Below, one piece after another: positions 14,649 to 27,733 of a stretch of DNA of 32,752 nucleotides (the first letter of the stretch is position 1; the number at the start of each line of letters is the position of its first letter). This DNA is from Microbacteriaceae bacterium (lineage in GTDB: Bacteria > Actinomycetota > Actinomycetes > Actinomycetales > Microbacteriaceae). The translations under genes were made by a program, and so were the position numbers. Under the pieces are notes generated by a model, which was given only the letters and a program-made list of their open reading frames with translations, made no database searches and was not told the origin of the DNA. The stretch is from contig CANBWO010000013.1 of NCBI GenBank assembly GCA_947373155.1, forward strand, positions 1 to 32,752. Reading direction: 5' to 3'.

Positions 14649-14832
14649 TCAGTTTCTCCTTGGATGCAGCGGTGGCGCCCACTTGGCGCCTACCCCACTC
14701 AAGGTGGTGCATCCGTCTCTAATGGTATTGCGGGGTTGCGACAGTTCAGAGAGTTCTCATGAAACTCTCAGTTTGCTTTGGGCGAACCGGTGCGTATAGC
14801 TCGAAACGCGGGTTTCGCACTAAAAACGACTC
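14649..14832. promoter_or_regulatory. Gap between the tubulin-vWA operon and lemA with two small inverted repeats
   Basis: GAGAGTT-CTCATGA-AACTCTC (14749-14769) and CGAAAC-GCGG-GTTTCG (14802-14817) are perfect small stems in this 184-bp gap. Both lie downstream of the RDD gene on its strand, where the operon should end. Neither is followed by a T-run on the minus strand. A further imperfect stem built on GGCGCC lies near 14674-14693, before lemA. The gap presumably holds the operon end and the lemA promoter, but I cannot assign either firmly. Confidence 0.35.
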
Positions 14833-15438
14833 TTAACCGCGGACAACTCTAGTGCTAAAAAATATGTCCATCAGCCTCTGACGCCTTGGCCCAAAAATGA
14901 AAAGTGAATCAACTAATGGGATTACAAAACTCGCAACCTGTAAGGCCCCCAACAGGAACGCAAATGCATACGGAAGGCTAAACCAACCAAGGATTGAAAA
15001 CGGTGCCAGAAATATTCCGATTACCAATGGTAGGTAATGCCGAAGGAATACCCTCCACCCCGGTGCAGGAAATCCGCCTTGAACATCCACAATTCGCATT
15101 CCCAAAATTTGTTTGGCAGGTGTCAGTCCTTTATTGGCGATGAAACAAAGCCATATAAACCAACCCACTCCGAAACTTATTGATGAGAGGAACCCGTCCA
15201 ATGCGGCGCCGGCTAACCTAAGCCACCTTGGAGCATCGGTAGATCCTTGAAGCATGTCAGCAGAATCCAAAAACTTTGGCTCGGACTCTACGAAATAGTA
15301 TTCAATGTTTTTCGGCTCTTGCGGTAGGCCTAATCTAGGCGGATGAAGGACAGTTAGATTCGTAGAACCACAAACGGCGCAGTGAAAATCCGAACCACTC
15401 ACTTTAGAGTTGCAATTTGCGCAAATTTTTTGCTGCAC
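14833..15438 (-). CDS. Zinc-ribbon RDD family membrane protein, last gene of the tubulin-vWA operon
   Basis: The 201-residue protein has an N-terminal zinc ribbon (C6-C9...C20-C23: CANCNSK, FHCAVCG), a linker, and an RDD-type membrane domain. That domain includes R74 and D81 in WLRLAGAALDGFL, TPAKQILGMRIVDVQGG, and a C-terminal RRQRLMDIFF. Hydrophobic segments lie at about 77-101, 134-153 and 158-181. The GTG start overlaps the stop of the preceding gene (TAGTG), so it belongs to the operon. RDD proteins are thought to be small transporters or membrane-associated modules; the substrate is unknown. The ribbon suggests contact with a partner protein. Confidence 0.85.
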   Translation of the reverse strand: MQQKICANCNSKVSGSDFHCAVCGSTNLTVLHPPRLGLPQEPKNIEYYFVESEPKFLDSADMLQGSTDAPRWLRLAGAALDGFLSSISFGVGWFIWLCFIANKGLTPAKQILGMRIVDVQGGFPAPGWRVFLRHYLPLVIGIFLAPFSILGWFSLPYAFAFLLGALQVASFVIPLVDSLFIFGPRRQRLMDIFFSTRVVRG

Positions 15439-17144
15439 TAGATTGCGCTCAATCCGCAGCTAGTCAACGAGGGGTTCGTTAGACGAGGGCAATGCGGCGA
15501 ACCGCAGTATACGCAAGTCTCTAGATGCAGGGATTCTGTTTCCTGATAAGTTTCAAAAGAGGCAACTCGAAGAGCACCTAGAGGTATCCCAGTTGTAATA
15601 CCCGACACGTCTATTCGAACAATTAAGTCAAACTCGTGGCCTTCATTTCTGGAACTTGAAATAAGTTTCGTTTGTTTGGGAATCTTTTGCCCAGATTCGG
15701 CAATCCTTTTGGCAATTCTGCTAGGCACAAATACCCACGATTCGACGTTTGCATGGTGCCCATCGAGCTGAAGTTTTTCAGTAAAGGCGAACTTCGCTAA
15801 CGCAGGCGAGCCAAAACTCAAATCCCCCATCGGCAAGGATAAGAATTGATCCCATTCGTACTCCGATTCCGCTGAACCTTGGGGTCCCTTCGCGCTAATG
15901 TCCGTCACTCGTAGCTCCGCGGCATCCAAGAGCGACCTCTCCACATCTCTTCTCTTGGATTCAACGTTCAAATCTCCAATGTGACCCAAGAAATCCTCGT
16001 CCTGAAGAAGCCTGAGCAACTCCGCTCGAGAACCATTTGGAGACACCGGGGTGTCCAAATCGAGAGCTTCCCAGTCAATGGCTCTGGCCGTACCCCTAAA
16101 CTTCTCTGACTCTTCTATAAGCGTGTCCAGAGCTCTGCTTCGCCATCCTGGCTCCGTAAGGCTTTCGATTGTGCTATTCACCATTCGGGACATTTGGATT
16201 GACCAAGAACCCGCCTCCGATTTCACATCGACAGCTTGACCTACATGCATAGAAATTGGGAGATTACTTGCTAGAAGGTTCCATTTAGAGTCTGCCTGAG
16301 GCGCATCCAACAGACGCCATGGAGTATACGCGTGCCTTGATAAAATAACTAACCAATCGATAACCTGTTGTCTTTGAATTCTCAATCTCGCTAATTCGTG
16401 ATGGGCCCGAACCGACGCCTCGCTGGCCCACTTCACTCGAACAGCTAGCACTTGCAGCTTGTCAAAATAGTCTCGATAGTCGAAATGGTACTTCAAAATC
16501 GCTTGAAGGAAAACGATTAAAAACAGTGCTGATAGAGCTACAACGGCGACGAATTTTGATGGCCAAACAGCGAGACGCAAAATCCAAAAAATGGCGATTG
16601 ACACCACAGGCCAAAACGAAATCGATAGGGCCAAAATGCCTGAGAGAACTAGCCACTTAGCAACTCTCTTGGCCGGCCACAACAACTTGCCTTTCTTCCT
16701 CTGGTTCCTTAGCACGATGCCTAAGACAAGACCAAAGGCACCAAAACCTATAAGCGGGTAGATAAGAAGCCCCCAAGGTGTAGCAAATGCCAGCGAATCC
16801 AGTAAATCTGTAACCCAAGAGAAGCCAAGTATCAATAAAATCGGCAATGCATAAGTCACAAATCGCCTTCCAACCGACTTGTGAAATCGCTTTCTAAATC
16901 CAATAAATTTGTCCTCTTTGTCCAATTGATCTTCAAGAGAAATGCTTGATGCCACAGAGTCTGCTTGGGCTCGACTCACTTCGCTATCTATCAAACCAAT
17001 TAGCTTGTAGAAAAAAGAGTTTTTGAAAGAATTTAGGTTCGTTTTAAGGAACGAATCGAAATCCACAAGCCTTGCACGTCTGTCCATGAGTATTTCAAGT
17101 TCAGCCTTAAGAGCCAATAGTTCAGGCGACTCGTCATTTGCCAT
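15438..17144 (-). CDS. Four-helix membrane protein with C-terminal cysteine motif (unknown family), tubulin-vWA operon
   Basis: I do not recognise this 568-residue protein. A charged helical N-terminus (1-90) precedes four predicted membrane helices (about 95-112, 124-146, 164-190, 198-217). A large hydrophilic part of about 330 residues follows. The last 27 residues hold four cysteines, C544, C547, C552 and C563 (CVYCGSPHC...C), a plausible zinc knuckle. The ATG at 17144 was chosen because GAGG lies six bases upstream; earlier starts (17171, 17195) would overlap the upstream gene further. It overlaps that gene by 11 bp and shares TAGTG with the RDD gene. The soluble part probably faces the cytoplasm beside the tubulin-like protein. 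Confidence 0.78.
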   Translation of the reverse strand: MANDESPELLALKAELEILMDRRARLVDFDSFLKTNLNSFKNSFFYKLIGLIDSEVSRAQADSVASSISLEDQLDKEDKFIGFRKRFHKSVGRRFVTYALPILLILGFSWVTDLLDSLAFATPWGLLIYPLIGFGAFGLVLGIVLRNQRKKGKLLWPAKRVAKWLVLSGILALSISFWPVVSIAIFWILRLAVWPSKFVAVVALSALFLIVFLQAILKYHFDYRDYFDKLQVLAVRVKWASEASVRAHHELARLRIQRQQVIDWLVILSRHAYTPWRLLDAPQADSKWNLLASNLPISMHVGQAVDVKSEAGSWSIQMSRMVNSTIESLTEPGWRSRALDTLIEESEKFRGTARAIDWEALDLDTPVSPNGSRAELLRLLQDEDFLGHIGDLNVESKRRDVERSLLDAAELRVTDISAKGPQGSAESEYEWDQFLSLPMGDLSFGSPALAKFAFTEKLQLDGHHANVESWVFVPSRIAKRIAESGQKIPKQTKLISSSRNEGHEFDLIVRIDVSGITTGIPLGALRVASFETYQETESLHLETCVYCGSPHCPRLTNPSLTSCGLSAI

Positions 17145-18942
17145 TTCTAGCCTCACTTTCACTGGAGCCATTTTGGTTTGGATCCTCAGATCCAAACAAT
17201 ATGGAATATTTTTTTGGCGCCATTGGCTTTTCTACTTCAGCTACAACTTTTCTAGTTGTCACATCGGATTGAGTTGGGTTGACGTTTTCCTCAACCGCCA
17301 GTTCTTCTTCATGGCCCATGACTTCATCAAAGTCATTAGCATCATCTCTAGAATTTTCGTCTTCGAGTTCTGTATCGTCGTCGTGATCATCTTCAGCAAA
17401 TTCAGGCTCTGATTCATCCTGAAATTCATTTTCAGTTTCAGCATGCAAATTAGCTAGTCTGAACTGCTCTCGTTGGACCTCTAGGTGAATATCGCGGATA
17501 TTTAAATCAACTTCCTTTACTCTCTCTGCAAGGGTCCCGTTCAGCTCGTAGATTTGCAAAGCACTCAAGGCTTCCGCGGAGCCTTCAATGAACTCCCTGT
17601 GTTCAGGAATTGTTTGAAATTGCTTATCTGGATCAGGGAAAACATTCTCAAGGAGCGGCAATACAGATTTCACATTAACGTCTGGTCCTCCATCTAATGA
17701 TGCAAAAACGATGCGCCGAAGTTCGCGCCAGACGTCCGGTTCTTGACGAAAGGATGCTGTGGAAGCTGCGTCCTGCGCTAGTTTCTCTTCTTGACCGAGA
17801 CCCTTCAAGAGCTCCGCCTTTAAACCAAGTACATCTTTGTCTAGGCCTGAGTAGCTCTCCGGATAAAAGTCACGAGCATTGCCCATGAGTTTGTTTACCA
17901 GACTCGAACCAAAGTTACTAATTCCGTACCAGGCAAAAAGGGGCAGAGCTGCAAGTGCTTTTATGCAAAATTGTCCAAAGAATTTCAAAGCTTCAATGGA
18001 ACTCCGGCTGAGATCCAAGTCACGGTTAGACGATCCGGTGTCGTATCTGAAGGCAGTTGAACTAAAACCGAGGACACGGTTTAGATACTTTTCTAATTCA
18101 GCATTGATTAAATCAACTTGAGATGGCGAAATTGCGCGCGGCCGCTCGGAGCCGTTATCTGAGGAATTCATGAAAGGAGAGGAATTGGGATCGGACGCTT
18201 TTCGAAGTGCCTCCAATACCACTTTTTCAGCAACGCCTTCGGCAACCACAATCGAGCCAATAGTTCGAACCACTAATGGCTGAGCCGTGGCTAATTGATC
18301 GGAATTCTTCTCAACAATAGAAAAAATCGAGTCGCTGAAGCCCGACCACAAACCACACACTGCTGCAATTTGCGCAACTACAAAGGGTCGGAAATTATCA
18401 TCAATTTTCAATGGCGCCGATGCCGCCCAAGGTTGGGCTCTTACTTCCGGCGAGCAGACCACGATGAGGTCGCTTCTGATCTTAGAAGCTAATGATGCCG
18501 ATTTTTCATCTGCACTCCAACTGAATGGGTAAACCGCCATTGCGATTGTTGCCAAGGGTCTTATCGGACGCCCACTCGCAGGGTCAACCCGTTGCGATAA
18601 GACATTTCGAAGTATTTCTTCCACACCCAATGTTGAATCAATTAGGTCTTGGCTTGGTTCTGCTTCACCCAGAACCCAAGTGGTCAATAGTTCAAGGCGG
18701 TCTGGTTGACTTCTTCCTAACTGTTCAAGTAAGTCGAAAGCATCAGAATCTATGCCTTCCGAGCAGCTCTTGACCTGAATCTTCCAATCTTTCTTGAAAT
18801 CTGGCCCTAGCAGTGATGGGGTAGTAAAGAAGAAATTTGAAATTAGCCCGCTTGAGATCCAACTCTGCGCAGTTTCAAGTACCTCAGCTGCAATTGGAAA
18901 ATCAGGAAGCACTATCAAAGCGATTTTTGATGTGAGGGCCAT
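17134..18942 (-). CDS. Cytosolic protein with long acidic tail (unknown family), tubulin-vWA operon
   Basis: I do not recognise this 602-residue protein. The start begins with an alternating hydrophobic strand (MALTSKIALIVLPDFP) that looks like the first beta strand of an alpha/beta fold. One hydrophobic stretch near residues 335-365 (FFGQFCIKALAALPLFAWYGI) could be a single membrane or monotopic segment. A mostly helical region follows. From about residue 520 the chain is very acidic (long D/E-rich runs such as AEDDHDDDTELEDENSRDD), then low-complexity to the end. Its ATG overlaps the stop of the tubulin-like gene (TAATG), which fixes the start. Tight coupling suggests a stoichiometric partner of the tubulin-like protein. 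Confidence 0.75.
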   Translation of the reverse strand: MALTSKIALIVLPDFPIAAEVLETAQSWISSGLISNFFFTTPSLLGPDFKKDWKIQVKSCSEGIDSDAFDLLEQLGRSQPDRLELLTTWVLGEAEPSQDLIDSTLGVEEILRNVLSQRVDPASGRPIRPLATIAMAVYPFSWSADEKSASLASKIRSDLIVVCSPEVRAQPWAASAPLKIDDNFRPFVVAQIAAVCGLWSGFSDSIFSIVEKNSDQLATAQPLVVRTIGSIVVAEGVAEKVVLEALRKASDPNSSPFMNSSDNGSERPRAISPSQVDLINAELEKYLNRVLGFSSTAFRYDTGSSNRDLDLSRSSIEALKFFGQFCIKALAALPLFAWYGISNFGSSLVNKLMGNARDFYPESYSGLDKDVLGLKAELLKGLGQEEKLAQDAASTASFRQEPDVWRELRRIVFASLDGGPDVNVKSVLPLLENVFPDPDKQFQTIPEHREFIEGSAEALSALQIYELNGTLAERVKEVDLNIRDIHLEVQREQFRLANLHAETENEFQDESEPEFAEDDHDDDTELEDENSRDDANDFDEVMGHEEELAVEENVNPTQSDVTTRKVVAEVEKPMAPKKYSILFGSEDPNQNGSSESEARNGK

Positions 18943-21900
18943 TATATTAGGCTCCCCTGCGAGCCAACCTGAGCAATTTGTGTTCGAAGTCCTGCGATTG
19001 CCTTGAGAATTTCTCGGCGCATCTCCCAAACCAATGAAGTATGTTTCACTCCAGGCGCTAGATCAAACGCATTTTTTGTGAAATCATCCTGCTCGTTCTG
19101 AAGGAAATTGAGAATTCGGGCTTTTCGCTGGTCAAGTGTCATGTTTGGGTTGCCAGCACGGTCATCACTTGGCATTGGGGCACCGTATGGAAGAGTTCCG
19201 GACTCAATCCACATTGCCAGGGCAGCGCTAATGGCACCTGGTAGCTCTGGTGTTCCGCTGGTATATGGTTCGACATCACCGCCTAAATCCATCACAGACC
19301 AGTAAGGAAACATTGGGTCCAGACGCTTAGTTTCGTTAACCTGTGCGAGCGCTAAAGAGACGCTCTGAGCAATGATTGGAATTACGTCTATGTTCTGAAT
19401 TTCTCCGGCGGTATATGACGGATGCGGAAAATCATTGTAGACAGGTGACGCAGGGTCTTGATTCCAAATTCCTAACTTTAATCCCTGCAGCGTCTGCTCG
19501 CTTTTCAACCGTCCAAGAGCCTTCGCTACAAACCAACCACGAATGAACTGATCTAGAACCTCAGGAGCCAAAGGGATCGTTTCCGGAATATTTCTCCCAC
19601 GACGTCGAAGGAGGAACGACTGCCTCTGTGCTTTATCTGGACTAGAAATCTTCCAAGCCTGCGAAATCGGAATCATCAAGTTATCAAACACAACATGATG
19701 AAGTGCTGAACTTAGAGTTACAAATACATCTACTTCTTTCACAGATGATTCAGGTTGAAAACGTTTTTCAACCTCTGTGTTCCACATACCTGCGGTGGAT
19801 AGAACGTCTTTTAACCTCCCCCCAATAGACCCTGAGTCTGCAGCGCTGAGTGCGATTGGAAGGGTCGATATACTCGATGAATAGCTGAGCGATGAATTTG
19901 GGTGAACCAATGGCAAAACTACATTGTTTACCTGAACAAATGGTTTTGCATTTTTCAAAACGGTAGAGAACTGTTCGACTAACGAATTCTCGCGCCTCTG
20001 CCTCTCAGACGCATCTTCATTTTCCGCGGCAAGCCACTGCGCGAGAGTCTGGCTTAGGTAGCGAGCCATTGATGTCTCTTTGCGGTGCACAAATCTTTGG
20101 GCGATGTCCTCCCATTCGTCAAGGTCACCCGCAAACGAGCCGCTCCAGGTTCGAGGCGCGGACTCACTTCCGTCACGAGGTATCCATCGACGAACTTCCC
20201 CGTCCTCAACATTCCATTCGTCATTTAGGTCTGTGGTGCGGCCAGAATAGGCGCCTTGGATCAGGAGCCTTACTGAAGTGTCTACTGCGGCACGCACCTT
20301 CCCCAACTCCCCGTTCACGCTTTCAACTAAAAGTTGACCAAAGACTGATTCAAATTCGGCCCAATCAATTAGGTAAAGTTCGTTTGGCGCTGGTTTGAAC
20401 TGATTTGGCACTCCATCTCCGCTTGGCCAGGTGTCAAAAATACTTTTACCCTCTGAATGGAATGATGGATCCATAATTTGACTCAATAACAGCTTGTATT
20501 TGCCGTCCAGTTCATCTATGAGGGGCTGGAGCATATTGCGAGCCAAGTCCGCTTCCAGGGCGTGGCCTAGTTTCTTCGTATCTTGCATCAAACTACTTGT
20601 TGCGCCTTTGCCAGACAGGTCTAACATGCTCTGAACTGCTTGACTATCAGAACCCAATTGAGCTTGGGCGGATGCGCCAGAGTTTCTCAAAATATCAGAA
20701 AGATCGTTTTGTAGAGACGTGTCAATTACAGACGCAAGAATGTCCTCTTGCTTGGAGTTGACTATTAGTTGATCTCTTAGCTGCTTCAAGAGCTGGATAG
20801 TTGGCCTAAGGCCAATTCTAGAAATTGATTCGTTTGTGAAGCTCAATATTTTCTTTTGAGTGTTCTCTGACCAAAGATCTACCTCGCGATAACTTCGCCA
20901 AGCGCGTTCTTGTTCATTTGTCAACTTCTTAGTGTTTCTCAAAATATCTTGCACCCAGGCTGCTGCCGATTTCAGACCTTTATTGTCCACTGCCAGACCA
21001 GATTGCCTTTGCAGGTCTCCTGTAAGGGAAGCTCGGAACATTTGGCGCTTAGCTACAGGTTGAATTTCTTCAACGATTGCCTTTGAATCAAGCTCTAGCT
21101 TGCCCCAGAATTTCTCCCATTCATCTGCAACAATCTTGCTTACCCACTGCTCCTCGTTGGCCTTGCCCATCCCCTCTCGATGTCCGTAGACAATTTGATT
21201 CACCGCGGCACGTGCTAATCTCTGGCCGGAGTAGCGAGCGAAAGACCTATCGCCCAAACTTACGCGAGCAAAACCAATTGCGTTGAACGGAGCCGAAAGG
21301 TGGTTGCTAACTTTGATTCTCAGAGGATCGCCGACAGTCTGCTCATTCATTTTGATGTAGTGGTCGATATTCTCACGAACACTCGAATCAACGACTAATT
21401 TGGCAAGGCTTACTGCGGCAGCATTGTAAACATCATCTTGAGAGTCAAAAGAAACTAGTCCATTGGTTTTACCTACCAGGTAGATACTCTTTGGCCCGAC
21501 GTTGAAGGTTCCATCTTCATTTTGAGCGAAACCAAATCGGTTATAGAGCGCCGCCGAAATGTCAGTTCTCTTCCTGCGCCAATATCCGCTAATCACCTCA
21601 TTCAAAGTTGCGAGCGAGTTTGGGGCAATTCCTGCCGATACGCTTATCTTTGGGTCGTTGAAGACATCTGGAGCAAAAAGAATCGCCGTTTGGTCGTTGA
21701 CCCAACCTTTGCCTGGGACTGCCGCTTTTACTGCTTCACAAACATCCATGAATTGCCCTGAGCCTGAACCTCCGGCTAGGGAAGAAACTAAATAGACTTT
21801 AGTTTGTACATCCTCAAGCTGTACCTGAGCGCCAAAAATGCGACCCAATTCCACCAACTGGGACTGCGCCCTTGCGCCTTGGATTTTATTATTTGCTAAC

Positions 21901-22325
21901 TCTACGCTCTGCTTGATCTGGTCAAGACGGGCGAGAGCCACCGTTCTTCCGATTCCTCTATATTGCCCGGCTCCCTTGTCGATTTGGCCTGTGTATTCAC
22001 CTCGTTTTGGAAGGGGAGTCAGAATTTCTTCACGAACAAGAGGCTCCCAGGGTTTGCTCTCAATATTTAGTATTACTGCATCAAGGGAACCGCCCGGCTG
22101 CACTAAACCCACATACTCATCTGGCCTTAGGAGCGGTGCCGGGAAGGACTGCCCATCTTGTATTGAAGGTGTATCGATGTGTAAGAATTGCCAAATTTCA
22201 GGAAATCCGCGGTCTGGTCCCCATTCCTTGGTAGCAAGAAGAATTTCGCGGAGTTCGCGCTTGATTGCTCGTAGAGTCTTACCGCCAGATCCTCCGACTC
22301 CGATGAAAATGTGTGGCGTGATCAT
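18942..22325 (-). CDS. Tubulin/FtsZ-like GTPase (Tubulin_2 type), core of the operon
   Basis: The 1127-residue protein opens with a nucleotide-binding start, MITPHIFIGVGGSGGKTLRAIKREL (G10-G15 loop), comparable to the GVGGGG of FtsZ. It has GAGQYRGIGRTVALARL at about 118-134 and the tubulin signature as SSLAGGSGSGQFMDV (G185-G190), with Ser in place of the usual Thr. About 900 mostly helical residues follow, far longer than FtsZ (about 350-400). I could not locate a convincing T7 catalytic loop, so hydrolysis and polymerisation are not certain. There is no signal peptide or membrane segment: the protein should be cytosolic. A strong AAAGGAGAG precedes the ATG, 17 bp after the vWA gene. Tubulin_2-type proteins with vWA partners have been proposed to remodel membranes. 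Confidence 0.85.
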   Translation of the reverse strand: MITPHIFIGVGGSGGKTLRAIKRELREILLATKEWGPDRGFPEIWQFLHIDTPSIQDGQSFPAPLLRPDEYVGLVQPGGSLDAVILNIESKPWEPLVREEILTPLPKRGEYTGQIDKGAGQYRGIGRTVALARLDQIKQSVELANNKIQGARAQSQLVELGRIFGAQVQLEDVQTKVYLVSSLAGGSGSGQFMDVCEAVKAAVPGKGWVNDQTAILFAPDVFNDPKISVSAGIAPNSLATLNEVISGYWRRKRTDISAALYNRFGFAQNEDGTFNVGPKSIYLVGKTNGLVSFDSQDDVYNAAAVSLAKLVVDSSVRENIDHYIKMNEQTVGDPLRIKVSNHLSAPFNAIGFARVSLGDRSFARYSGQRLARAAVNQIVYGHREGMGKANEEQWVSKIVADEWEKFWGKLELDSKAIVEEIQPVAKRQMFRASLTGDLQRQSGLAVDNKGLKSAAAWVQDILRNTKKLTNEQERAWRSYREVDLWSENTQKKILSFTNESISRIGLRPTIQLLKQLRDQLIVNSKQEDILASVIDTSLQNDLSDILRNSGASAQAQLGSDSQAVQSMLDLSGKGATSSLMQDTKKLGHALEADLARNMLQPLIDELDGKYKLLLSQIMDPSFHSEGKSIFDTWPSGDGVPNQFKPAPNELYLIDWAEFESVFGQLLVESVNGELGKVRAAVDTSVRLLIQGAYSGRTTDLNDEWNVEDGEVRRWIPRDGSESAPRTWSGSFAGDLDEWEDIAQRFVHRKETSMARYLSQTLAQWLAAENEDASERQRRENSLVEQFSTVLKNAKPFVQVNNVVLPLVHPNSSLSYSSSISTLPIALSAADSGSIGGRLKDVLSTAGMWNTEVEKRFQPESSVKEVDVFVTLSSALHHVVFDNLMIPISQAWKISSPDKAQRQSFLLRRRGRNIPETIPLAPEVLDQFIRGWFVAKALGRLKSEQTLQGLKLGIWNQDPASPVYNDFPHPSYTAGEIQNIDVIPIIAQSVSLALAQVNETKRLDPMFPYWSVMDLGGDVEPYTSGTPELPGAISAALAMWIESGTLPYGAPMPSDDRAGNPNMTLDQRKARILNFLQNEQDDFTKNAFDLAPGVKHTSLVWEMRREILKAIAGLRTQIAQVGSQGSLI

Positions 22326-22342
22326 GTGCTCTCCTTTGGTTT

Positions 22343-25075
22343 CTAAATGTCTGAATACGGATCTGCGCTTGCAGAATTCTGATTTTGTCCTGGGCTTGAA
22401 GAAGACGAAGGCGTACTGTATTCGTCGTAATCTTTAGTTACCTTTTCAATAGGCCCTTGTTGAGTTGCTAAAATCTTGGACTTAGGTTGCTTCTTTCCTT
22501 TTGGCTTATTTGCGGCGACGTTTCCCTTAGTTGCGCCGCTAGATCCAGGGTGGGCCGCTAATAATGAATCGACATTTTGGGCAAAGAATCCACCGGACAT
22601 AACGTTGGCTAATGCCCCGGCGTAATCGCCGGATTGATCAGCGTTGAAAACAACAAGTTCACCCGCGATTTGGCCGTTAGCTTTGGCCTTGGTTTGTGCA
22701 TCATTTTCCAAAATTACAAACGCCAAATTAGACAACTGCCCGTCAGTCAATCTCGAGTTTTCAAAAGTAATCTTTGTTGAGTCTGAGTTCTTTCCCACTG
22801 GAACTCCCAACTTGCCGAGCGGCGGAATGAAAACAAACTTAGGAGGGTTTAGAGGCCACTTCGCCCGGTAAGCCACTATTCGGGCACCAGTGTCATCGTC
22901 TGTGAATGAGGCCATACCTTGGATTGGCAAACTTCTTGAAAGTTGACTAAACAGCTTGCTCGCCTCTATGGGGTCGAATGAGCTTGAACCCGAGCTGTTT
23001 GCAACGTATTTGCTATCTGGATAGTAAGTGAACTTCGCTACTCCACGGTCTAAACCAGCCGAAGAGTAAATCCGAGCTGCCGGTGAAGAAATGATGTACA
23101 AAACTGAGTATGGAATCAGAATGCTGAGGATGCTTAATCCGATGAACCAAAGCCAAAAAAGGCCGCCTTGGGTATTTCTCTTTGTATTGAGGATGACGTT
23201 TTGGCTGTCACTCACTTGGAATCCGTCTCCTGAGGCGAGAGAGTAGTCAAACAGCAACTGAACCGAAGAATCAGCTTGGATGTCATTAGTGAAAACGGAC
23301 GCCAAATTCTTAGTGCTACCTTCAGTTACGGCAATGCAGCCTCTCTTGTCTAGGCTCTTAAAATTGATTTTCCAGTGCTTTGAACGAGGAGTTGCCCCTC
23401 CTGAGGATTGGTCCTGATTGTCGGCTAGAACTTTAGGCTGCGCGAAGCAGACAACCCCCTGTCCTCCAGTGTTGGGTGCCGAAACTAAAAATTTTGCGAT
23501 TGCCCGCCCCTTTGAACCCACTAGAGGTTTACGGAAAATGATCTTAGAAACCATTGGTAGTGACTGTGGCTGGAGTACTGGCTTTGTCAATGCAAAGTTG
23601 AGCGGAGCCAAATCTGGGTGGTGCTCGGTTTGGAGGCTAAGGGTGGCTTTGATAGCCAACGACTGCGCACCAGCTTCTGGAGTAAATGGATCAAGCTGAA
23701 AAACACCACTCGGCGTAATAGACGCCTTAGCTGGCTTGCCGTTTACCCACGCAGAAATATTTGCCTTTGTGAAATCCGATAGCGTCGCTGGGACACCAGT
23801 GCTCAGATTGCTCACAAACTGTCCGCTGATTGAATTCTTACGCCCCGAGAAAACAGCATTATCGTGCAGGCTCAAATAGAGTTCTGGATAAACAATGACA
23901 GTGAATGGGGAGTCGCTCTTGAACGTCCATGCTTGCGACTTGGTCAATCTTGGAATTTCCACTCGGCCTGTCGTGCCGAGGTATTGCGACCCTTCGGAAG
24001 TGGATTGAACCTTGCCCGTCGCATCGATAATTTGCCAATTTTTAGCGGATGTTAGAACTTCAAAGGATCGGATTCCAGGATCGAGCCAAAATTTACCCGT
24101 TGTTGAACCCTGTTGAGCTGTACCTCCGGCGACCTTGCTATTTAGAAGCAAGAAGCTATAGGCAATTTGAGCGGCGCTGACAGCTTTCAAAAATGCGCCT
24201 GTTGAATATGTTCGGTTCTCGCTAGAAGCAAGTTCTCCACACACGAGTTTCCCACCTGGAAGCCCATTAACGCTTTGAAGCTTCGGACCGGTCTCTTCGA
24301 TTACTGGCAACATTAACGATTTGTAATAGCCTTCATTTTTTTCACCAGTTGCCGAAGAATCAGCATTCGGAGACAGCATGATGCCGAAGACGTTGATTTT
24401 TGACTTACGTATTTTGGCCATAAGACCGTCGGCGCTTGGCGAGCTTGATATTGAGGATGGTGAAGTCCCTGGCCCGCACAAGGTGCTCAGGTCATTGAGG
24501 CTTTTCACTCTTGGGTCTTGCGACCAAAGACCACCATCTGTAAACCAAACAACAGCTTTGCAATCAGCAGACGAACCCTGAAGCTGGGAATAAGCCTCTT
24601 GCAGGCCGGCAGTCCAATTGGTGTAGTAGTCAAGCGCCTTTGCCTTGATTTTCTGCTTGAAAGATGAAGCAACGCTGCCGGCGTTAGTCGCGGTAAGGTC
24701 TGTCCAGCTCGTTAGAGGACTGGAACTTCCGGCGAAGAACGCACCCGCTACGCTTATTTGTAGTTTGGGTTGGATTTTAAGAATGTCGGACCATCGCTTG
24801 ATATCCTGAGCGACAATGTCTGCGCGCAAGAAACTTGGATCTGTTCCGGGAGAGCCGCTCTTTGGATCAGCACCTAAGGACTTTGAGTTATCTATTAGGT
24901 AAAAAACGTCCAATTTGTTTGCAGTCCTAAGGCAACTTGCCAAGTCCTGCATTGTTGAATCTCCATAAGGACTAAGCGCTGCAGGACCATCTGCCGCTAA
25001 AGCAACGTTTTGACCATTAATCAGCCCAGCAAAAGCGAACGAAATTCCCATTATTACTGACAGAATTTTCTTCAT
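22343..25075 (-). CDS. Secreted, membrane-anchored vWA-domain protein, partner of the tubulin-like protein
   Basis: The 910-residue protein has a signal peptide (cleavage probably near residue 28, ALA-ADG) and a vWA domain (about 50-290). The MIDAS is complete: D62-S64-S66 (LIDNSKSL), T155 (YTNWTAGL) and D180 (VVWFTDGG). A beta-rich region leads to one membrane helix (about 637-662, LFWLWFIGLSILSILIPYSVLYII). A cytoplasmic part of about 250 residues ends in a Lys-rich then Ser/Gln/Asn-rich tail. All six cysteines of the chain lie in the outer part, consistent with disulfides and this topology. The start overlaps the previous stop (ATGA). The vWA domain probably binds an external ligand through Mg while the tail contacts cytosolic partners. 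Confidence 0.87.
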   Translation of the reverse strand: MKKILSVIMGISFAFAGLINGQNVALAADGPAALSPYGDSTMQDLASCLRTANKLDVFYLIDNSKSLGADPKSGSPGTDPSFLRADIVAQDIKRWSDILKIQPKLQISVAGAFFAGSSSPLTSWTDLTATNAGSVASSFKQKIKAKALDYYTNWTAGLQEAYSQLQGSSADCKAVVWFTDGGLWSQDPRVKSLNDLSTLCGPGTSPSSISSSPSADGLMAKIRKSKINVFGIMLSPNADSSATGEKNEGYYKSLMLPVIEETGPKLQSVNGLPGGKLVCGELASSENRTYSTGAFLKAVSAAQIAYSFLLLNSKVAGGTAQQGSTTGKFWLDPGIRSFEVLTSAKNWQIIDATGKVQSTSEGSQYLGTTGRVEIPRLTKSQAWTFKSDSPFTVIVYPELYLSLHDNAVFSGRKNSISGQFVSNLSTGVPATLSDFTKANISAWVNGKPAKASITPSGVFQLDPFTPEAGAQSLAIKATLSLQTEHHPDLAPLNFALTKPVLQPQSLPMVSKIIFRKPLVGSKGRAIAKFLVSAPNTGGQGVVCFAQPKVLADNQDQSSGGATPRSKHWKINFKSLDKRGCIAVTEGSTKNLASVFTNDIQADSSVQLLFDYSLASGDGFQVSDSQNVILNTKRNTQGGLFWLWFIGLSILSILIPYSVLYIISSPAARIYSSAGLDRGVAKFTYYPDSKYVANSSGSSSFDPIEASKLFSQLSRSLPIQGMASFTDDDTGARIVAYRAKWPLNPPKFVFIPPLGKLGVPVGKNSDSTKITFENSRLTDGQLSNLAFVILENDAQTKAKANGQIAGELVVFNADQSGDYAGALANVMSGGFFAQNVDSLLAAHPGSSGATKGNVAANKPKGKKQPKSKILATQQGPIEKVTKDYDEYSTPSSSSSPGQNQNSASADPYSDI

Positions 25076-25392
25076 GACACCACGCTCAAAAGACTAGAAA
25101 TTCTCCAAGCATGCGCCAAACCAACGGCAATTGACAAGTATGCGAGCAATCTAAGTGTGGTTGTGTAACCCGGTTTGGCAATTAGGTAAGCTCGATTTTT
25201 TGGTGATTGCTGCATATTGGTGTCGATGCCGTACAAGGTAAAAAGCAGGACCGGTCCAAGAAACCAACCCGCAAAACTGGTGGCGTAGTTCGTGTTTGTA
25301 ACTAGGCGCATAAGCGGAAGCGCTGCCAAAAGGATGCTAGAAGTTACGGAAATTAAACCAAGGACAACTGGCCAGGATTTAGCGGGTCTCAT
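25072..25392 (-). CDS. Small three-helix membrane protein (unknown), tubulin-vWA operon
   Basis: I do not recognise this 106-residue protein. Three hydrophobic segments are visible (VVLGLISVTSSILLAALPLM, GWFLGPVLLFTLYGI, LRLLAYLSIAVGLAHAW), joined by short loops. I chose the ATG at 25392, 17 bp after the lipoprotein stop. TTG starts at 25407 and 25437 are possible and the latter would overlap the upstream gene. It overlaps the vWA gene by ATGA, so the two are coupled and the protein is a likely membrane partner of the vWA protein. Confidence 0.65.
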   Translation of the reverse strand: MRPAKSWPVVLGLISVTSSILLAALPLMRLVTNTNYATSFAGWFLGPVLLFTLYGIDTNMQQSPKNRAYLIAKPGYTTTLRLLAYLSIAVGLAHAWRISSLLSVVS

Positions 25393-25409
25393 TTTTATTT
25401 CATTCAAGG

Positions 25410-25802
25410 CTATTTCTTCATTTCTATGGAAATGCAATGGCGAAGGATCCTTGCCGCCTCTTCTTCAAGCAATAAAGTACCCGCGGCCTTAGAGAAAATT
25501 GATGATTGCTCGGTTTTCTTCTCGGCATCTATGAAGGCTTTGATTTGCCCGCCAAAATGCATCGAGGCTTTGGGTAAAGCTTGGTTCTCTAGCCTTTTGG
25601 AAAGCTCATGAAGATAACCGGCGTCTAATACGAGAGAACCGTCTGAGTTTTGAATTAGGTCAGATACTTCGTTGCAGGCAATTTGATCTTGCTTTGTGGC
25701 ATTCAAGGACGTAACAGAGCATCCAGAGGTTGAAATGCAAATCATGGCCAGTGTTAGCAAAGACACGGATGCAGTTGCCCTGCTAATTTTTGATACTTTC
25801 AC
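25410..25802 (-). CDS. Predicted lipoprotein, first gene of the tubulin-vWA operon
   Basis: The 130-residue protein starts with a basic stretch (KVSKISR) and a hydrophobic core (ASVSLLTLAMICI), then STSGC, a lipobox-like site with Thr rather than the usual aliphatic residue at -3. The mature part is about 100 residues, polar and largely helical, with two further cysteines (ACNEV, RHCIS). I chose GTG at 25802 because it gives a normal signal sequence; a TTG at 25838 would add 12 unlikely residues. No clear ribosome site is seen. I do not recognise the mature domain. It is the promoter-proximal gene, transcribed away from the LuxR gene at 26183. Confidence 0.62.
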   Translation of the reverse strand: MKVSKISRATASVSLLTLAMICISTSGCSVTSLNATKQDQIACNEVSDLIQNSDGSLVLDAGYLHELSKRLENQALPKASMHFGGQIKAFIDAEKKTEQSSIFSKAAGTLLLEEEAARILRHCISIEMKK

Positions 25803-25900
25803 GACGCGGTTACCCAATGTCGAGTGCAAAACAGACAACAGTCCATCCGAGAATCAAAAAATATTCTCATGTTTACTGATAGAACACTCAGGGCGCTTGT

Positions 25901-25946
25901 ATCTGAAAAGTGATCTGAAAAATTTACCCTCAAGGCGCTGAGGGTA
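25901..25946. promoter_or_regulatory. Direct repeats and palindrome upstream of the tubulin-vWA operon
   Basis: ATCTGAAAA occurs at 25901-25909 and 25913-25921, a 12-bp period. It is followed by the perfect palindrome TACCCTCA-AGGCGC-TGAGGGTA (25925-25946). They lie 100-145 bp before the operon start within the 380-bp divergent gap 25803-26182. The spacing is typical of activator sites. On the minus strand the stem is followed by AAATTTTT, so an attenuator is an alternative. No firm -35/-10 pair is visible. Confidence 0.5.
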
Positions 25947-26051
25947 TTTGGTCGCGCCAGGATAACAGCGTTCATTGCTCCTACCCCCAAAAATAATTTC
26001 CCTTTCGATAGTCTCTCGGAGTTCGGTATTACGCTTAGGGACTCGTTGCAT

Positions 26052-26091
26052 TTTTTAGCCAAAAGTTAGCCGTCTATTTATCAGCTAAAAA
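26052..26091. promoter_or_regulatory. AT-rich inverted repeat before the LuxR-type gene
   Basis: TTTTTAGC (26052-26059) and GCTAAAAA (26084-26091) form an 8-bp inverted repeat around an AT-rich centre. TTAGCC occurs twice, at 26055 and 26066. The segment 26041-26100 is only one-third G+C by hand count. It is a likely promoter or regulator-binding region for the gene at 26183 or for the divergent operon. Confidence 0.35.
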
Positions 26092-26182
26092 CGAACAAAA
26101 GGTACACAATGCACGATGTCATGCCGCCTTTGAAGAGAGCATAGTTTTAGTCGTGAACTTGCTGGGGGTGGCTTGAAGACCA

Positions 26183-26887
26183 ATGGAACCGAATAGCTAC
26201 GAATGGCAAGTGACAAGTGCCCTCTTTGAGTGCAGGACGATTGATGAAATTCTCGATCTGCTGGTTCTCTCTAATCTTGCAATCAAGGGATCACTATTCT
26301 CCGCTGTCGTAACAGTCAACACTGAGGGCGCTCTTGAAATCAGGCATTCAAAGCTGCTTTCATTTGTCATTCCCCGGACCCTTTCCTGCCCCCAAGATGA
26401 AATAGGTGCGTTAGCCAGACTTGCGGGAGTCGCGTTCCTGGATCCCCTTGAGTCAAGCCTGTCGAGTCAAATAGCTGACATCTCGGTTGCCAAAGCGAAG
26501 TGCGTAGCTGTTGTACCGATTTGGTTTTCGGGATGCTTTTATGGTTTTACGGTGACTGGTCTAAACAGAGGAGCCCAAGAAGGTCAGGCATTGGAGTCAT
26601 CGGTTTTCCTTCTGAGCGTTGTCGCCAAAGCAATTGCACGTTTCTTGCACAAACCAACTATGTGGTCAAGCATGAAGAGTCAGCCTCTAGAAAGATTGAC
26701 TGATAGGCAAATGCATATTTGCGACCTAATAGAGCGTGGCCTTAGCAATTCAGACATCTCCAGCGAGCTCCACCTAAGTTTAGGTTCGGTAAAACTTGAA
26801 GTCTCCAAAATACTTCGCAAACTTGGAGTCGCAAATCGTAAAGAGATTTATGTGCCTAAAGACAATGAAACCAAGATTTTGACTTAG
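26183..26887 (+). CDS. LuxR-type regulator with N-terminal sensory-like domain, divergent from the tubulin-vWA operon
   Basis: The 234-residue protein has an N-terminal alpha/beta region (about 1-155) without receiver-domain residues. Its hydrophobic strand pattern (SLFSAVVTVNTEGALEIRHS, CVAVVPIWFSGCFYGFTVTG) resembles a GAF-like ligand domain. The C-terminus (172-222) is a LuxR helix-turn-helix: LTDRQMHICDLIERGLSNSDIS, GSVKLEVSKILRKLGVANRKE. It is not a phosphorylated response regulator. It lies 380 bp from the lipoprotein gene, pointing the other way, and its base composition matches the AT-rich operon. The placement makes it the obvious candidate regulator of the tubulin-vWA genes. Confidence 0.78.
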   Translation: MEPNSYEWQVTSALFECRTIDEILDLLVLSNLAIKGSLFSAVVTVNTEGALEIRHSKLLSFVIPRTLSCPQDEIGALARLAGVAFLDPLESSLSSQIADISVAKAKCVAVVPIWFSGCFYGFTVTGLNRGAQEGQALESSVFLLSVVAKAIARFLHKPTMWSSMKSQPLERLTDRQMHICDLIERGLSNSDISSELHLSLGSVKLEVSKILRKLGVANRKEIYVPKDNETKILT

Positions 26888-26994
26888 CCATATCATTGTC
26901 GCGCCTTAGCGCCGGGCAATAAAAATGAAAATTGAGTGAATCAAAACAGAGTTACAAATAGCAAAATAAAAAACAGAAAGGGCGGAATTTAAAA

Positions 26995-27360
26995 ATGAAT
27001 TTCGGTAAGGCATTCGTTTCCTATTGGGGTAACTATGCAAAATTTGATGGGCGCGCAAGCAGATCAGAATTTTGGTTTGCGGCTCTAGCAAACGGCTTGA
27101 TTGGCCTAGTGGTCGTAGTTTCGTCGGTGAGTTTTGATGCAAATGGCCTGCCAAGCTATGGTCCTTTGTATTGGATTTGGCTATTGGCCACATTGCTTCC
27201 AAGTCTTGCGATCTACTCAAGGCGGCTCCACGACACCAACCGCTCGTTCACAAACTATTGGTTGACGTTGATTCCGATCGTAGGTGCAATTATTCTCCTC
27301 GTTTATGTTTGCCAGCCAAGCACTCCGGGTTCAAACAAATACGGTGAACTTGTTCGCTAA
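26995..27360 (+). CDS. DUF805 family membrane protein
   Basis: The 121-residue protein carries the DUF805 landmarks: FDGRASRSEFWFAALAN near the start, YSRRLHDTNRSFTNYW in the middle, and QPSTPGSNKYG at the end. Three or four membrane helices lie between. The function is unknown; such proteins are common single-gene membrane proteins. A purine-rich AAGGGCGG precedes the ATG by about a dozen bases. It follows the LuxR-type gene on the same strand after 107 bp and may be part of the same AT-rich cassette. Confidence 0.85.
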   Translation: MNFGKAFVSYWGNYAKFDGRASRSEFWFAALANGLIGLVVVVSSVSFDANGLPSYGPLYWIWLLATLLPSLAIYSRRLHDTNRSFTNYWLTLIPIVGAIILLVYVCQPSTPGSNKYGELVR

Positions 27361-27422
27361 ATAGTCCTAATCCCCAAAAAAGGCCTTTCAGGGTGGACGG
27401 AAAGGAAAAAGCAATCTGACTA

Positions 27423-27473
27423 AGCGCGCCAGGATTGCCCACCGAGCAGCGCGCCAGGGTCACCCATCGAACC
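27423..27473. repeat. Two diverged ~25-bp direct repeats at the edge of the AT-rich block
   Basis: AGCGCGCCAGGATTGCCCAC (start of unit 1, 27423) and AGCGCGCCAGGGTCACCCAT (start of unit 2, 27448) align over about 25 bases with five differences. Further GCGCC/GAACC fragments continue to about 27500. The core CGCGCCAGGAT also occurs once at 25953-25963. The composition changes here from AT-rich to strongly GC-rich. They may be decayed repeats or integration remnants; no function is visible. Confidence 0.5.
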
Positions 27474-27497
27474 GCGCCTGAGTAACTTGGCGAACCG

Positions 27498-27566
27498 CGC
27501 CCCACCCAGCCCGAATCACCGATTCGGGCTAACCCGGTGGGGGCCCGAGCGCAGTTGCTCGCGGGC
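27498..27566. other. Compact GC-rich multi-stem structure
   Basis: AGCCCGAATC-ACC-GATTCGGGCT (27508-27530) is a perfect 10-bp stem with a 3-base loop. It is enclosed by CCCCACC (27500-27506) pairing with GGTGGGG (27536-27542). Directly after, GCCC-GAGC-GCAGTT-GCTC-GC-GGGC (27543-27566) folds with a 2-base bulge. No T-run follows. It sits between convergent DUF805 and tRNA transcription units, so a two-way transcription barrier or a small structured RNA are both possible. Confidence 0.55.
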
Positions 27567-27579
27567 TAGGGGAAAAAGT

Positions 27580-27609
27580 AAAGATCCCGACCAAAAGGCC
27601 TGGATCTTT
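27580..27609 (-). terminator. Rho-independent terminator of the tRNA transcript
   Basis: AAAGATCC and GGATCTTT form an 8-bp stem (27580-27587 with 27602-27609) starting six bases after the tRNA 3' end on the minus strand. It is followed by ACTTTTT in that direction. Position, stem and T-run fit termination of the leftward tRNA transcript. Confidence 0.75.
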
Positions 27610-27614
27610 TCTTG

Positions 27615-27687
27615 TGCCCCCAGTCGGACTCGAACCGACACTGAAACGATTTTAAGTCGTCTTCCTCTGCCATTGGGATATGGGGGC
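27615..27687 (-). tRNA. tRNA with anticodon UAA (Leu codon UUA) but class I shape
   Basis: The 73-nt cloverleaf is complete. The acceptor GCCCCCA pairs with TGGGGGC, with discriminator A. There is a short 3-bp D stem with GG in the loop. The anticodon stem GACGA/TCGTT (one G-U) carries loop CTTAAAA with anticodon TAA, and the T arm GTCGG-TTCGAGT-CCGAC is perfect. The variable loop has only five bases (TCAGT), whereas leucine tRNAs normally carry a long variable arm. CCA is not encoded (CAAG follows). It lies downstream of ndh on the same strand and is followed by a terminator. By anticodon it reads UUA; the amino acid should be checked because of the class I shape. Confidence 0.85.
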
Positions 27688-27733
27688 GAGGCCCACATCG
27701 ATGCAAAAAAGCACACCGCTGCGGGAATGCAAA

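What the first reader, a model, noticed from the sequence alone, without database searches (positions are those of the whole stretch)
14833..25802. Seven-gene tubulin-like / vWA operon: candidate membrane-remodelling system in an actinobacterium
Seven leftward genes are locked together: 17 bp from the lipoprotein stop to the small membrane gene, ATGA into vWA, 17 bp plus a strong ribosome site into the tubulin-like gene, TAATG, an 11-bp overlap, then TAGTG. The tubulin-like protein shows GVGGSGGKT and AGGSGSG; the vWA protein has a complete MIDAS. From memory, Makarova and Koonin (Biology Direct, 2010) proposed that one new FtsZ/tubulin family works with a vWA protein, a distinct GTPase and OmpA-type proteins in membrane remodelling. 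Here no OmpA protein or second GTPase is visible. Instead there are two unrecognised large proteins, a lipoprotein, a small membrane protein and a zinc-ribbon RDD protein, so this looks like a Gram-positive version with its own partner set. The topology suggests an outside sensor (lipoprotein, vWA domain) coupled through one helix to a cytosolic filament-former.
Basis: partly seen in the sequence, partly recalled or inferred. Interest (0 to 1): 0.85.

Follow-up and report, generated by a model that had tools for sequence, protein, structure and literature searches.

The report
Tubulin-vWA membrane operon with exchangeable tail
A small-genome actinobacterium carries an operon for a large tubulin relative, a surface vWA protein and a membrane hub protein of unrecognised fold; related operons in many actinobacteria keep this core but differ in the last gene, which is sometimes an outward-facing nuclease or protease, a hint at an envelope defence or stress machine.

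Summary
In detail: seven leftward genes with the junctions described. The 1127-residue protein is a Tubulin_2 (FtsZl1) protein (Pfam E 1e-40); its AlphaFold2 model (pLDDT 88) matches FtsZ, CetZ and tubulin. The vWA MIDAS is complete.

The survey corrects the reading. Five of the seven genes are a conserved core: small membrane protein, vWA, tubulin, and P631+P585, which are one fused protein in 67 of 71 named loci with both halves. The core is complete in 58 of 60 loci with 4.5 kb on either side. The lipoprotein has no relative in 100 loci. The RDD gene fills a variable tail slot: GmrSD_C nuclease 9, trypsin 5, both 1, of 46 loci.

Parent kinds are published (FtsZl1/vWA operons 2010; GAP1-N2 GTPase-tubulin systems 2020). 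GAP1-N2 is in 19 of 19 genomes searched of one clade, 0 of 33 on the window's side. A second diverged operon exists in this genome; the window's lies in a low-GC segment beside tRNA-Leu. Function is inferred, not shown.

The parts
25410..25802 (-). 130-aa predicted lipoprotein (weak lipobox STSGC, by eye); private to this locus
   Evidence: no relative at E<=0.01 in 100 Tubulin_2 loci; no Pfam match
25072..25392 (-). SM: 106-aa small membrane protein, conserved core component
   Evidence: homologue upstream of TUB in 69 of 80 named loci
22343..25075 (-). vWA protein, 910 aa: N-terminal hydrophobic signal, vWA domain with complete MIDAS, one TM (644-662), C-terminal tail
   Evidence: homologue in 74 of 80 named loci
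18942..22325 (-). TUB: 1127-aa Tubulin_2/FtsZl1 protein; N-terminal FtsZ/tubulin GTPase fold plus long, mostly helical region
   Evidence: Pfam PF13809 E 1.1e-40; AF2 pLDDT 87.9; Foldseek matches to CetZ/FtsZ/tubulin
17134..18942 (-). P631 (602 aa from the ATG): N-terminal half of the hub protein, no TM predicted
   Evidence: homologous to the N half of the hub, found in 77 of 80 named loci; TM scan
15438..17144 (-). P585 (568 aa): C-terminal half of the hub protein, 3-4 predicted TM by threshold, C-terminal domain
   Evidence: found in 72 of 80 named loci; TM; model of a fused homologue (L054, 22% identical)
14833..15438 (-). Tail module: N-terminal CxxC pairs (zinc ribbon by eye) + RDD membrane domain, 201 aa
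   Evidence: Pfam RDD E 1.4e-6; RDD relatives in the flanks of L053, L055, L077, L084
26183..26887 (+). divergent LuxR-type (GerE HTH) regulator on the same low-GC segment
   Evidence: Pfam GerE E 1.7e-11
27614..27687 (-). tRNA-Leu(taa) at the right edge of the low-GC segment (variable site)

Best explanation
Identity (about 0.9 sure): the branch without the partner GTPase of the actinobacterial tubulin-vWA (FtsZl1 / Tubulin_2) membrane systems. Core: small membrane protein, surface vWA protein, giant tubulin-like protein, and a hub protein (alpha/beta domain, helical part, coiled coil, TM helices, alpha/beta domain) that is here split into P631 and P585. Mechanism (inferred, about 0.4): the vWA domain sits outside and, by metal-dependent binding, senses an envelope event; its single helix and tail, with SM and the P585 helices, pass this to P631 and the tubulin-like protein, which cluster or polymerise with GTP under the membrane; the assembly then licenses a tail module. 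In other genomes the tail is often an outward-facing nuclease or protease; here it is an RDD membrane protein, and a SHOCT protein in the second operon. The best fit is an envelope-linked conflict or stress device of the kind Kaur et al. proposed for their GTPase-tubulin systems. Shown: gene content and order, co-occurrence, Tubulin_2 membership, predicted folds of TUB and of a fused hub homologue, tail exchange, position at a variable site. Inferred: polymerisation, sensing, direction of signal, effector role of the tail.
For: Core complete in 58 of 60 well-flanked loci, 66 of 80 in all. Hub fused in 67 of 71 loci, split in 4 named ones and both own operons. Tubulin fold and near-invariant glycine loops. 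A separate 394-aa FtsZ/Tubulin-family gene (PF00091, taken as the division FtsZ) elsewhere. GAP1-N2 in 19 of 19 genomes searched of one TUB clade, 0 of 33 on the window's side. Tail gene after P585: GmrSD_C nuclease 9, Trypsin_2 5, both 1, of 46 named loci outside that clade and not at a contig end; hydropathy and charge put the enzyme outside in the 4 nucleases and 3 proteases measured. Patchy: 0 of 35 congeners hold Tubulin_2, 12 of them at least 90% complete; variable site beside tRNA-Leu. A BLAST cluster near the core in 8 loci of the GTPase clade is TerD in the one member scanned.
Against: Of those 46 loci 20 show no adjacent same-strand tail gene by my rule and 11 have other or unrecognised ORFs (two of these, L064 and L066, not family-scanned), among them a PfkB kinase and a GNAT enzyme that look unrelated. 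The window's own tail is an RDD protein, not a known toxin. In L039 the trypsin domain is fused behind two TM helices and would lie inside by the same hydropathy count. PADLOC: no match for the window's four large core proteins, only weak ones (best E 0.005) for two others. The TUB tree follows families fairly well, and no phage record matches. The second operon has no clear GC contrast. No T7-type catalytic motif was established for TUB. The hub has no fold match, so its role is a guess.
Confidence: 0.42

Rival explanations
1. Membrane remodelling or vesicle machine, as Makarova and Koonin proposed for FtsZl1: the tubulin-like protein forms filaments on the membrane and, held by vWA and P585, bends it.
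For: Tubulin fold; SM, vWA, P585 and RDD have predicted TM helices; published proposal (PMC2875224: abstract, section 3 part 1, section 6 read).
Against: Proposed from gene context only; one reviewer objected to the topology (passage seen). Among the seven genes no known remodelling protein was recognised; it does not explain exchangeable nuclease or protease tails.
Confidence: 0.25
2. Scaffold or switch for export, anchoring or processing of surface enzymes: the core positions and releases the tail protein (nuclease, protease, Excalibur protein, RDD) for ordinary nutrient or wall work.
For: Several tails are outward-facing enzymes or carry surface domains.
Against: 20 of 46 loci have no adjacent tail gene; a giant tubulin looks costly for this (inference).
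Confidence: 0.17
3. Cell-shape or division accessory that helps the divisome.
For: Tubulin superfamily; a DivIC gene lies about 4 kb from the operon.
Against: Separate FtsZ/Tubulin-family gene; not found in 35 of 35 congeners, 12 of them at least 90% complete; the DivIC gene lies outside the low-GC segment.
Confidence: 0.08
4. Non-functional passenger in decay.
For: Long branch, odd composition, hub split.
Against: All frames open, near-invariant residues kept, a second diverged operon and four other split loci also with open halves.
Confidence: 0.05

Closest known systems
FtsZl1 / Tubulin_2 (PF13809) - vWA operons, Makarova and Koonin 2010 (PMC2875224)
   Same: Same tubulin-like family, N-terminal GTPase domain plus helical C-terminal part; vWA partner with intact MIDAS; membrane partners; present beside ordinary FtsZ.
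   Different: No OmpA, kinase or P-loop GTPase recognised among the seven genes; a conserved hub protein P631-P585 and small membrane protein that the text read does not name (its supplements list further families and could not be opened); exchangeable tail.
GAP1-N2 / DO-GTPase tubulin systems of Actinobacteria, Kaur et al. 2020 (PMC7159879, abstract, sections 27 and 29, passages)
   Same: Single tubulin gene with alpha-helical C-terminus next to a membrane-bound vWA protein; up to three versions per genome; the same SM-vWA-TUB-hub core precedes GAP1-N2 in Mycobacterium, Rhodococcus, Williamsia and others.
   Different: GAP1-N2 and DO-GTPase2 not found in the locus or the genome; a single small tail gene instead.
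Other Tubulin_2 loci in large-genome, unnamed actinomycetes (L027-L029)
   Same: Tubulin_2 domain.
   Different: TUB outside this subfamily (no hit at 1e-20); weak DO-GTPase matches below cut-off in L027 and L029 (L028 not scanned); no SM, vWA or hub hit with the seed profiles.

Membership tests
FtsZl1 / Tubulin_2 family | Match to PF13809 over its cut-off, full length | tested here: met
   140.5 bits against 27, profile 1-355 of 356
FtsZl1 / Tubulin_2 family | FtsZ/tubulin GTPase fold with glycine loops | tested here: met
   AF2 + Foldseek: 37 PDB chains at E<=0.001, all from FtsZ, CetZ or tubulin/microtubule entries, best 4.5e-5; superposition loose (TM on target up to 0.51, rmsd 5.5-13 A); glycines conserved
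FtsZl1 / Tubulin_2 family | GTP hydrolysis and filaments | not testable with these tools
   needs biochemistry
vWA/FtsZl1 operon | vWA gene with MIDAS in the operon | tested here: met
vWA/FtsZl1 operon | diverged P-loop GTPase, kinase or OmpA partner (frequent, not universal) | tested here: not met
   none recognised among the seven genes; DO-GTPase2, which I take as that GTPase, not in the genome; kinases and OmpA not searched genome-wide
Kaur GAP1-N2 GTPase-centric system | GAP1-N2 protein | tested here: not met
   0 of 1 own genome, 0 of 32 kindred genomes, 32 of 57 named ones given; positive control 19 of 19 searched, 20 of 23 given, one not held
Kaur GAP1-N2 GTPase-centric system | DO-GTPase | tested here: not met
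   own genome 0; 2 of 32 kindred genomes have one somewhere, 11 of 18 in the GTPase clade (at most 45 candidates per genome scored, so lower bounds)
Known anti-phage systems (PADLOC 2.0.0) | Match to a PADLOC model | tested here: not met
   7 proteins given; none for the window's four large core proteins; weak LeoA (0.006, L035 TUB) and CARF (0.005, LuxR gene) only

The most novel reading that the evidence does not exclude
A previously unrecognised, widespread actinobacterial machine: a membrane-tethered tubulin scaffold, switched from outside by a vWA receptor through a hub protein of unmatched fold, that fires exchangeable outward-facing effectors (HNH nuclease, trypsin-like protease, or both) as an envelope immunity device that has dispensed with the partner GTPase.
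Probability: 0.3. Interest if true: 0.85.

Novelty: new variant of a known kind. Interest (0 to 1): 0.58.

Why it matters
Tubulin_2 proteins have been known since 2010, and none of the paper listings seen here shows a tested function. This work defines a compact core complete in 58 of 60 well-flanked loci, shows that its hub is one protein split in two in this host, separates a GTPase-bearing from a GTPase-less side, and points to tail enzymes with predictable activities (HNH nuclease, trypsin-like protease). That turns a broad membrane-remodelling guess into tests in culturable relatives such as Subtercola, Microbacterium or Cellulosimicrobium.

Tried and rejected
P631 or P585 as a degenerate DO-GTPase or GAP1: no such match for the window pair or for 8 fused relatives (whose only strong hit is trypsin in L039). 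P631 as a second, dead tubulin domain: hhalign of A4 against A2 finds nothing. Fold search of the fused hub: no PDB or BFVD match at E<=0.001; long helices dominate the weak hits, so a match of a small domain could be hidden. Profile search of TUB against PDB sequences gave only weak matches, mostly to helical proteins, so the FtsZ link rests on Pfam and on the fold. The first genome scan, with the window protein alone, found nothing; alignment A1 did. The P631 profile was contaminated by shadow frames and was rebuilt. In one search my distance rule wrongly dropped L068, L075, L076, L088, L101 and L114; one search corrected this. Att repeats: none of 12 bases or more to the tRNA region within the window; no integrase among the genes scanned. 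Promoter scan: 1 site against 13 expected. Split hub as one clade: not shown (5 changes, shuffled mean 5.9). The SM match to DUF373 (E 0.0074, below cut-off) is taken as chance.
Full report
What is there. The operon runs from 25802 down to 14833. Beside it lie LemA and an HtpX-like M48 protease downstream on the same strand, and a divergent LuxR-type gene upstream.

The tubulin-like protein. Pfam Tubulin_2 matches residues 6-375 at E 1.1e-40; classical Tubulin only at 0.29. AlphaFold2 on an alignment of 80 sequences gives mean pLDDT 87.9 and pTM 0.84. Foldseek lists 37 PDB chains at E<=0.001, all from FtsZ, CetZ or tubulin/microtubule entries, best CetZ2 at 4.5e-5 with TM 0.51 on the target; the superpositions are loose, rmsd 5.5-13 A. 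The glycine loops are invariant or nearly so. The rest is mostly helical. I did not establish a catalytic T7 loop. A separate 394-aa Tubulin/FtsZ-family gene, taken as the division FtsZ, lies on another contig.

A second copy. The same 1.57-Mb, 91%-complete genome holds a second operon, L003, in the same order, SM-vWA-TUB-N half-C half, then a SHOCT protein in place of RDD. TUB identity between the two is 30%, vWA 28%, hub halves 22-23%. They are not sisters in the tree. Its GC contrast with its flanks is slight.

The synteny survey. Tubulin_2 is patchy: 0 of 35 congeners (12 of them at least 90% complete) and 3 of 23 other relatives; 16 of 395 other genomes over the phylum. A scan of named genomes with an 8-sequence TUB alignment found 140 relatives, of which the tool kept the best 80. 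In these 80, vWA is upstream in 74, SM in 69, the N half of the hub downstream in 77, the C half in 72, all four in 66. Strand and side were part of the counting rule; that SM precedes vWA was then checked, without exception. Most misses are contig ends. In the 60 loci with at least 4.5 kb on each side, 58 have the full core; the other two, L074 and L110, lack only SM. Just outside that cut, L067 lacks upstream vWA and SM and the hub, and L099 lacks a C-half hit with 3.7 kb downstream. The loci were chosen by TUB, so this says what goes with this TUB subfamily, not how common it is. Ten other Tubulin_2 loci lie outside the subfamily and show no SM, vWA or hub hit with the seed profiles.

P631 and P585 are one protein. 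In 67 of 71 named loci with both halves they share one ORF, though in two of these, L060 and L063, the last part of the C half lies in another frame. They are split in L045, L055, L069, L089 and in both operons of this genome. Split loci do not form one clade. The fused homologue L054 (21-22% identical to the window halves; alignment A4 with 58 of the 67 fused proteins) folds with mean pLDDT 87.6: N-terminal alpha/beta domain, helical part, long coiled coil, membrane helices, C-terminal alpha/beta domain. No Pfam, PDB-fold or viral-fold match, and no profile kinship to TUB. Hydropathy gives two or four TM helices in five of six hub proteins measured and three, one of them weak, in L121; at a stricter cut the window's P585 shows three. 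If the even counts are right, both alpha/beta domains lie inside.

The GTPase side. The 25-row TUB clade of Mycobacterium, Rhodococcus, Gordonia, Williamsia, Propionibacteriaceae and others has, after the core, BLAST clusters of a protein of about 670-830 aa and of a GAP1 protein in 22 of its 23 named loci; the GAP1-N2/GAP1-M and DO-GTPase2 names rest on scanned members in L121 and L093, DO-GTPase2 below its cut-off there. Genome-wide, GAP1-N2 is found in 19 of 19 such genomes searched and in 0 of 33 of the rest (32 of the 57 other named ones, plus this one). DO-GTPase2 is in 11 of 18 and 2 of 32, not in this genome (only part of the candidates scored). I read the abstract, sections 27 and 29 and passages of Kaur et al. 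2020 (PMC7159879): they describe actinobacterial GAP1-N2 systems with one tubulin and a membrane vWA protein. The window is thus on the side without that half.

The tail slot. Outside that clade 48 loci hold the C half and do not end there (46 named, 2 own). The gene after P585 is a GmrSD_C nuclease in 9 of the 46, Trypsin_2 in 5, both in one protein in L073; 11 have other or unrecognised ORFs (Excalibur L060, partial Septum_form L055, PfkB L070, GNAT L106, the rest without a match, L064 and L066 not scanned); 20 have none by my rule; own: RDD and SHOCT. L076 is counted by its nuclease although its ORF start lay outside the rule; L073 starts 66 bp off. Unnamed same-family locus L036 also has the nuclease. 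In unnamed L039 a trypsin domain is fused to the hub, behind two TM helices, so by hydropathy inside, which is against the outside pattern. In the 4 nucleases and 3 proteases measured, N-terminal TMs with positive inside put the enzyme outside. RDD relatives lie in the flanks of L053 and L055 (opposite strand), L077 and, farther off, L084.

The variable site. GC falls from 0.55-0.56 to 0.47 over the operon, and tRNA-Leu(taa) stands at the right edge. Of 39 congeners searched, 30 have LemA and the FAD oxidoreductase on one contig, all 30 in the same order with 192-5035 bp between, against 13130 here; two have them on different contigs, seven have neither hit. All eight sites read have the tRNA; four read for ORFs carry other genes, by eye pirin-like, transporter-like and an LPxTG-like protein, not family-scanned. 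So this is a site of gene gain; no integrase among scanned genes and no att repeat of 12 bases or more. On mobile records: two Rhodococcus plasmids over 1 Mb at 24% identity, no phage.

Reading. Identity is firm, function is not. The 2010 paper (abstract, section 3 part 1, section 6, passages read) proposed membrane remodelling from context. A constant core with an exchangeable, sometimes outward-facing nuclease or protease, patchy presence and kinship with the Kaur systems favour a conflict or envelope-stress device. Against it: many loci without an adjacent tail, no PADLOC match for the core, a fairly vertical tree.

Literature. Listings of searches showed no experimental paper on a Tubulin_2 system; long hit lists were seen only in part (for example 5 of 661). 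PMC9871819 (passages) sets the family aside. This holds for the held open-licence library only.

Noticed in passing
window 14650-27690: Variable site between LemA and tRNA-Leu(taa)/FAD oxidoreductase: 192-5035 bp in 30 congeners, with pirin-like, transporter-like or LPxTG-like genes (by eye) in four read, 13.1 kb with the tubulin operon here.
   Followed up: yes
L073:16807-18636: One tail protein with both a trypsin-like and a GmrSD_C nuclease domain, like a protease-armed nuclease.
   Followed up: no
L085, L087, L093, L102, L108, L109, L112, L117 upstream flank: BLAST cluster near the core on the same strand in 8 loci of the GTPase clade; TerD in the one member scanned, L112.
   Followed up: no
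L067: Apparent tandem of two operons: TUB followed by SM, vWA and a second TUB at the contig end; MAG titled Bifidobacterium breve, which I doubt.
   Followed up: no
L054: Record titled Planococcus sp., but its TUB sits inside Microbacteriaceae: perhaps a mislabelled genome.
   Followed up: no
window 26995-27360: DUF805 membrane protein on the same low-GC segment; DUF805 relatives also in the loci L082, L072, L040 and weakly L055.
   Followed up: partly
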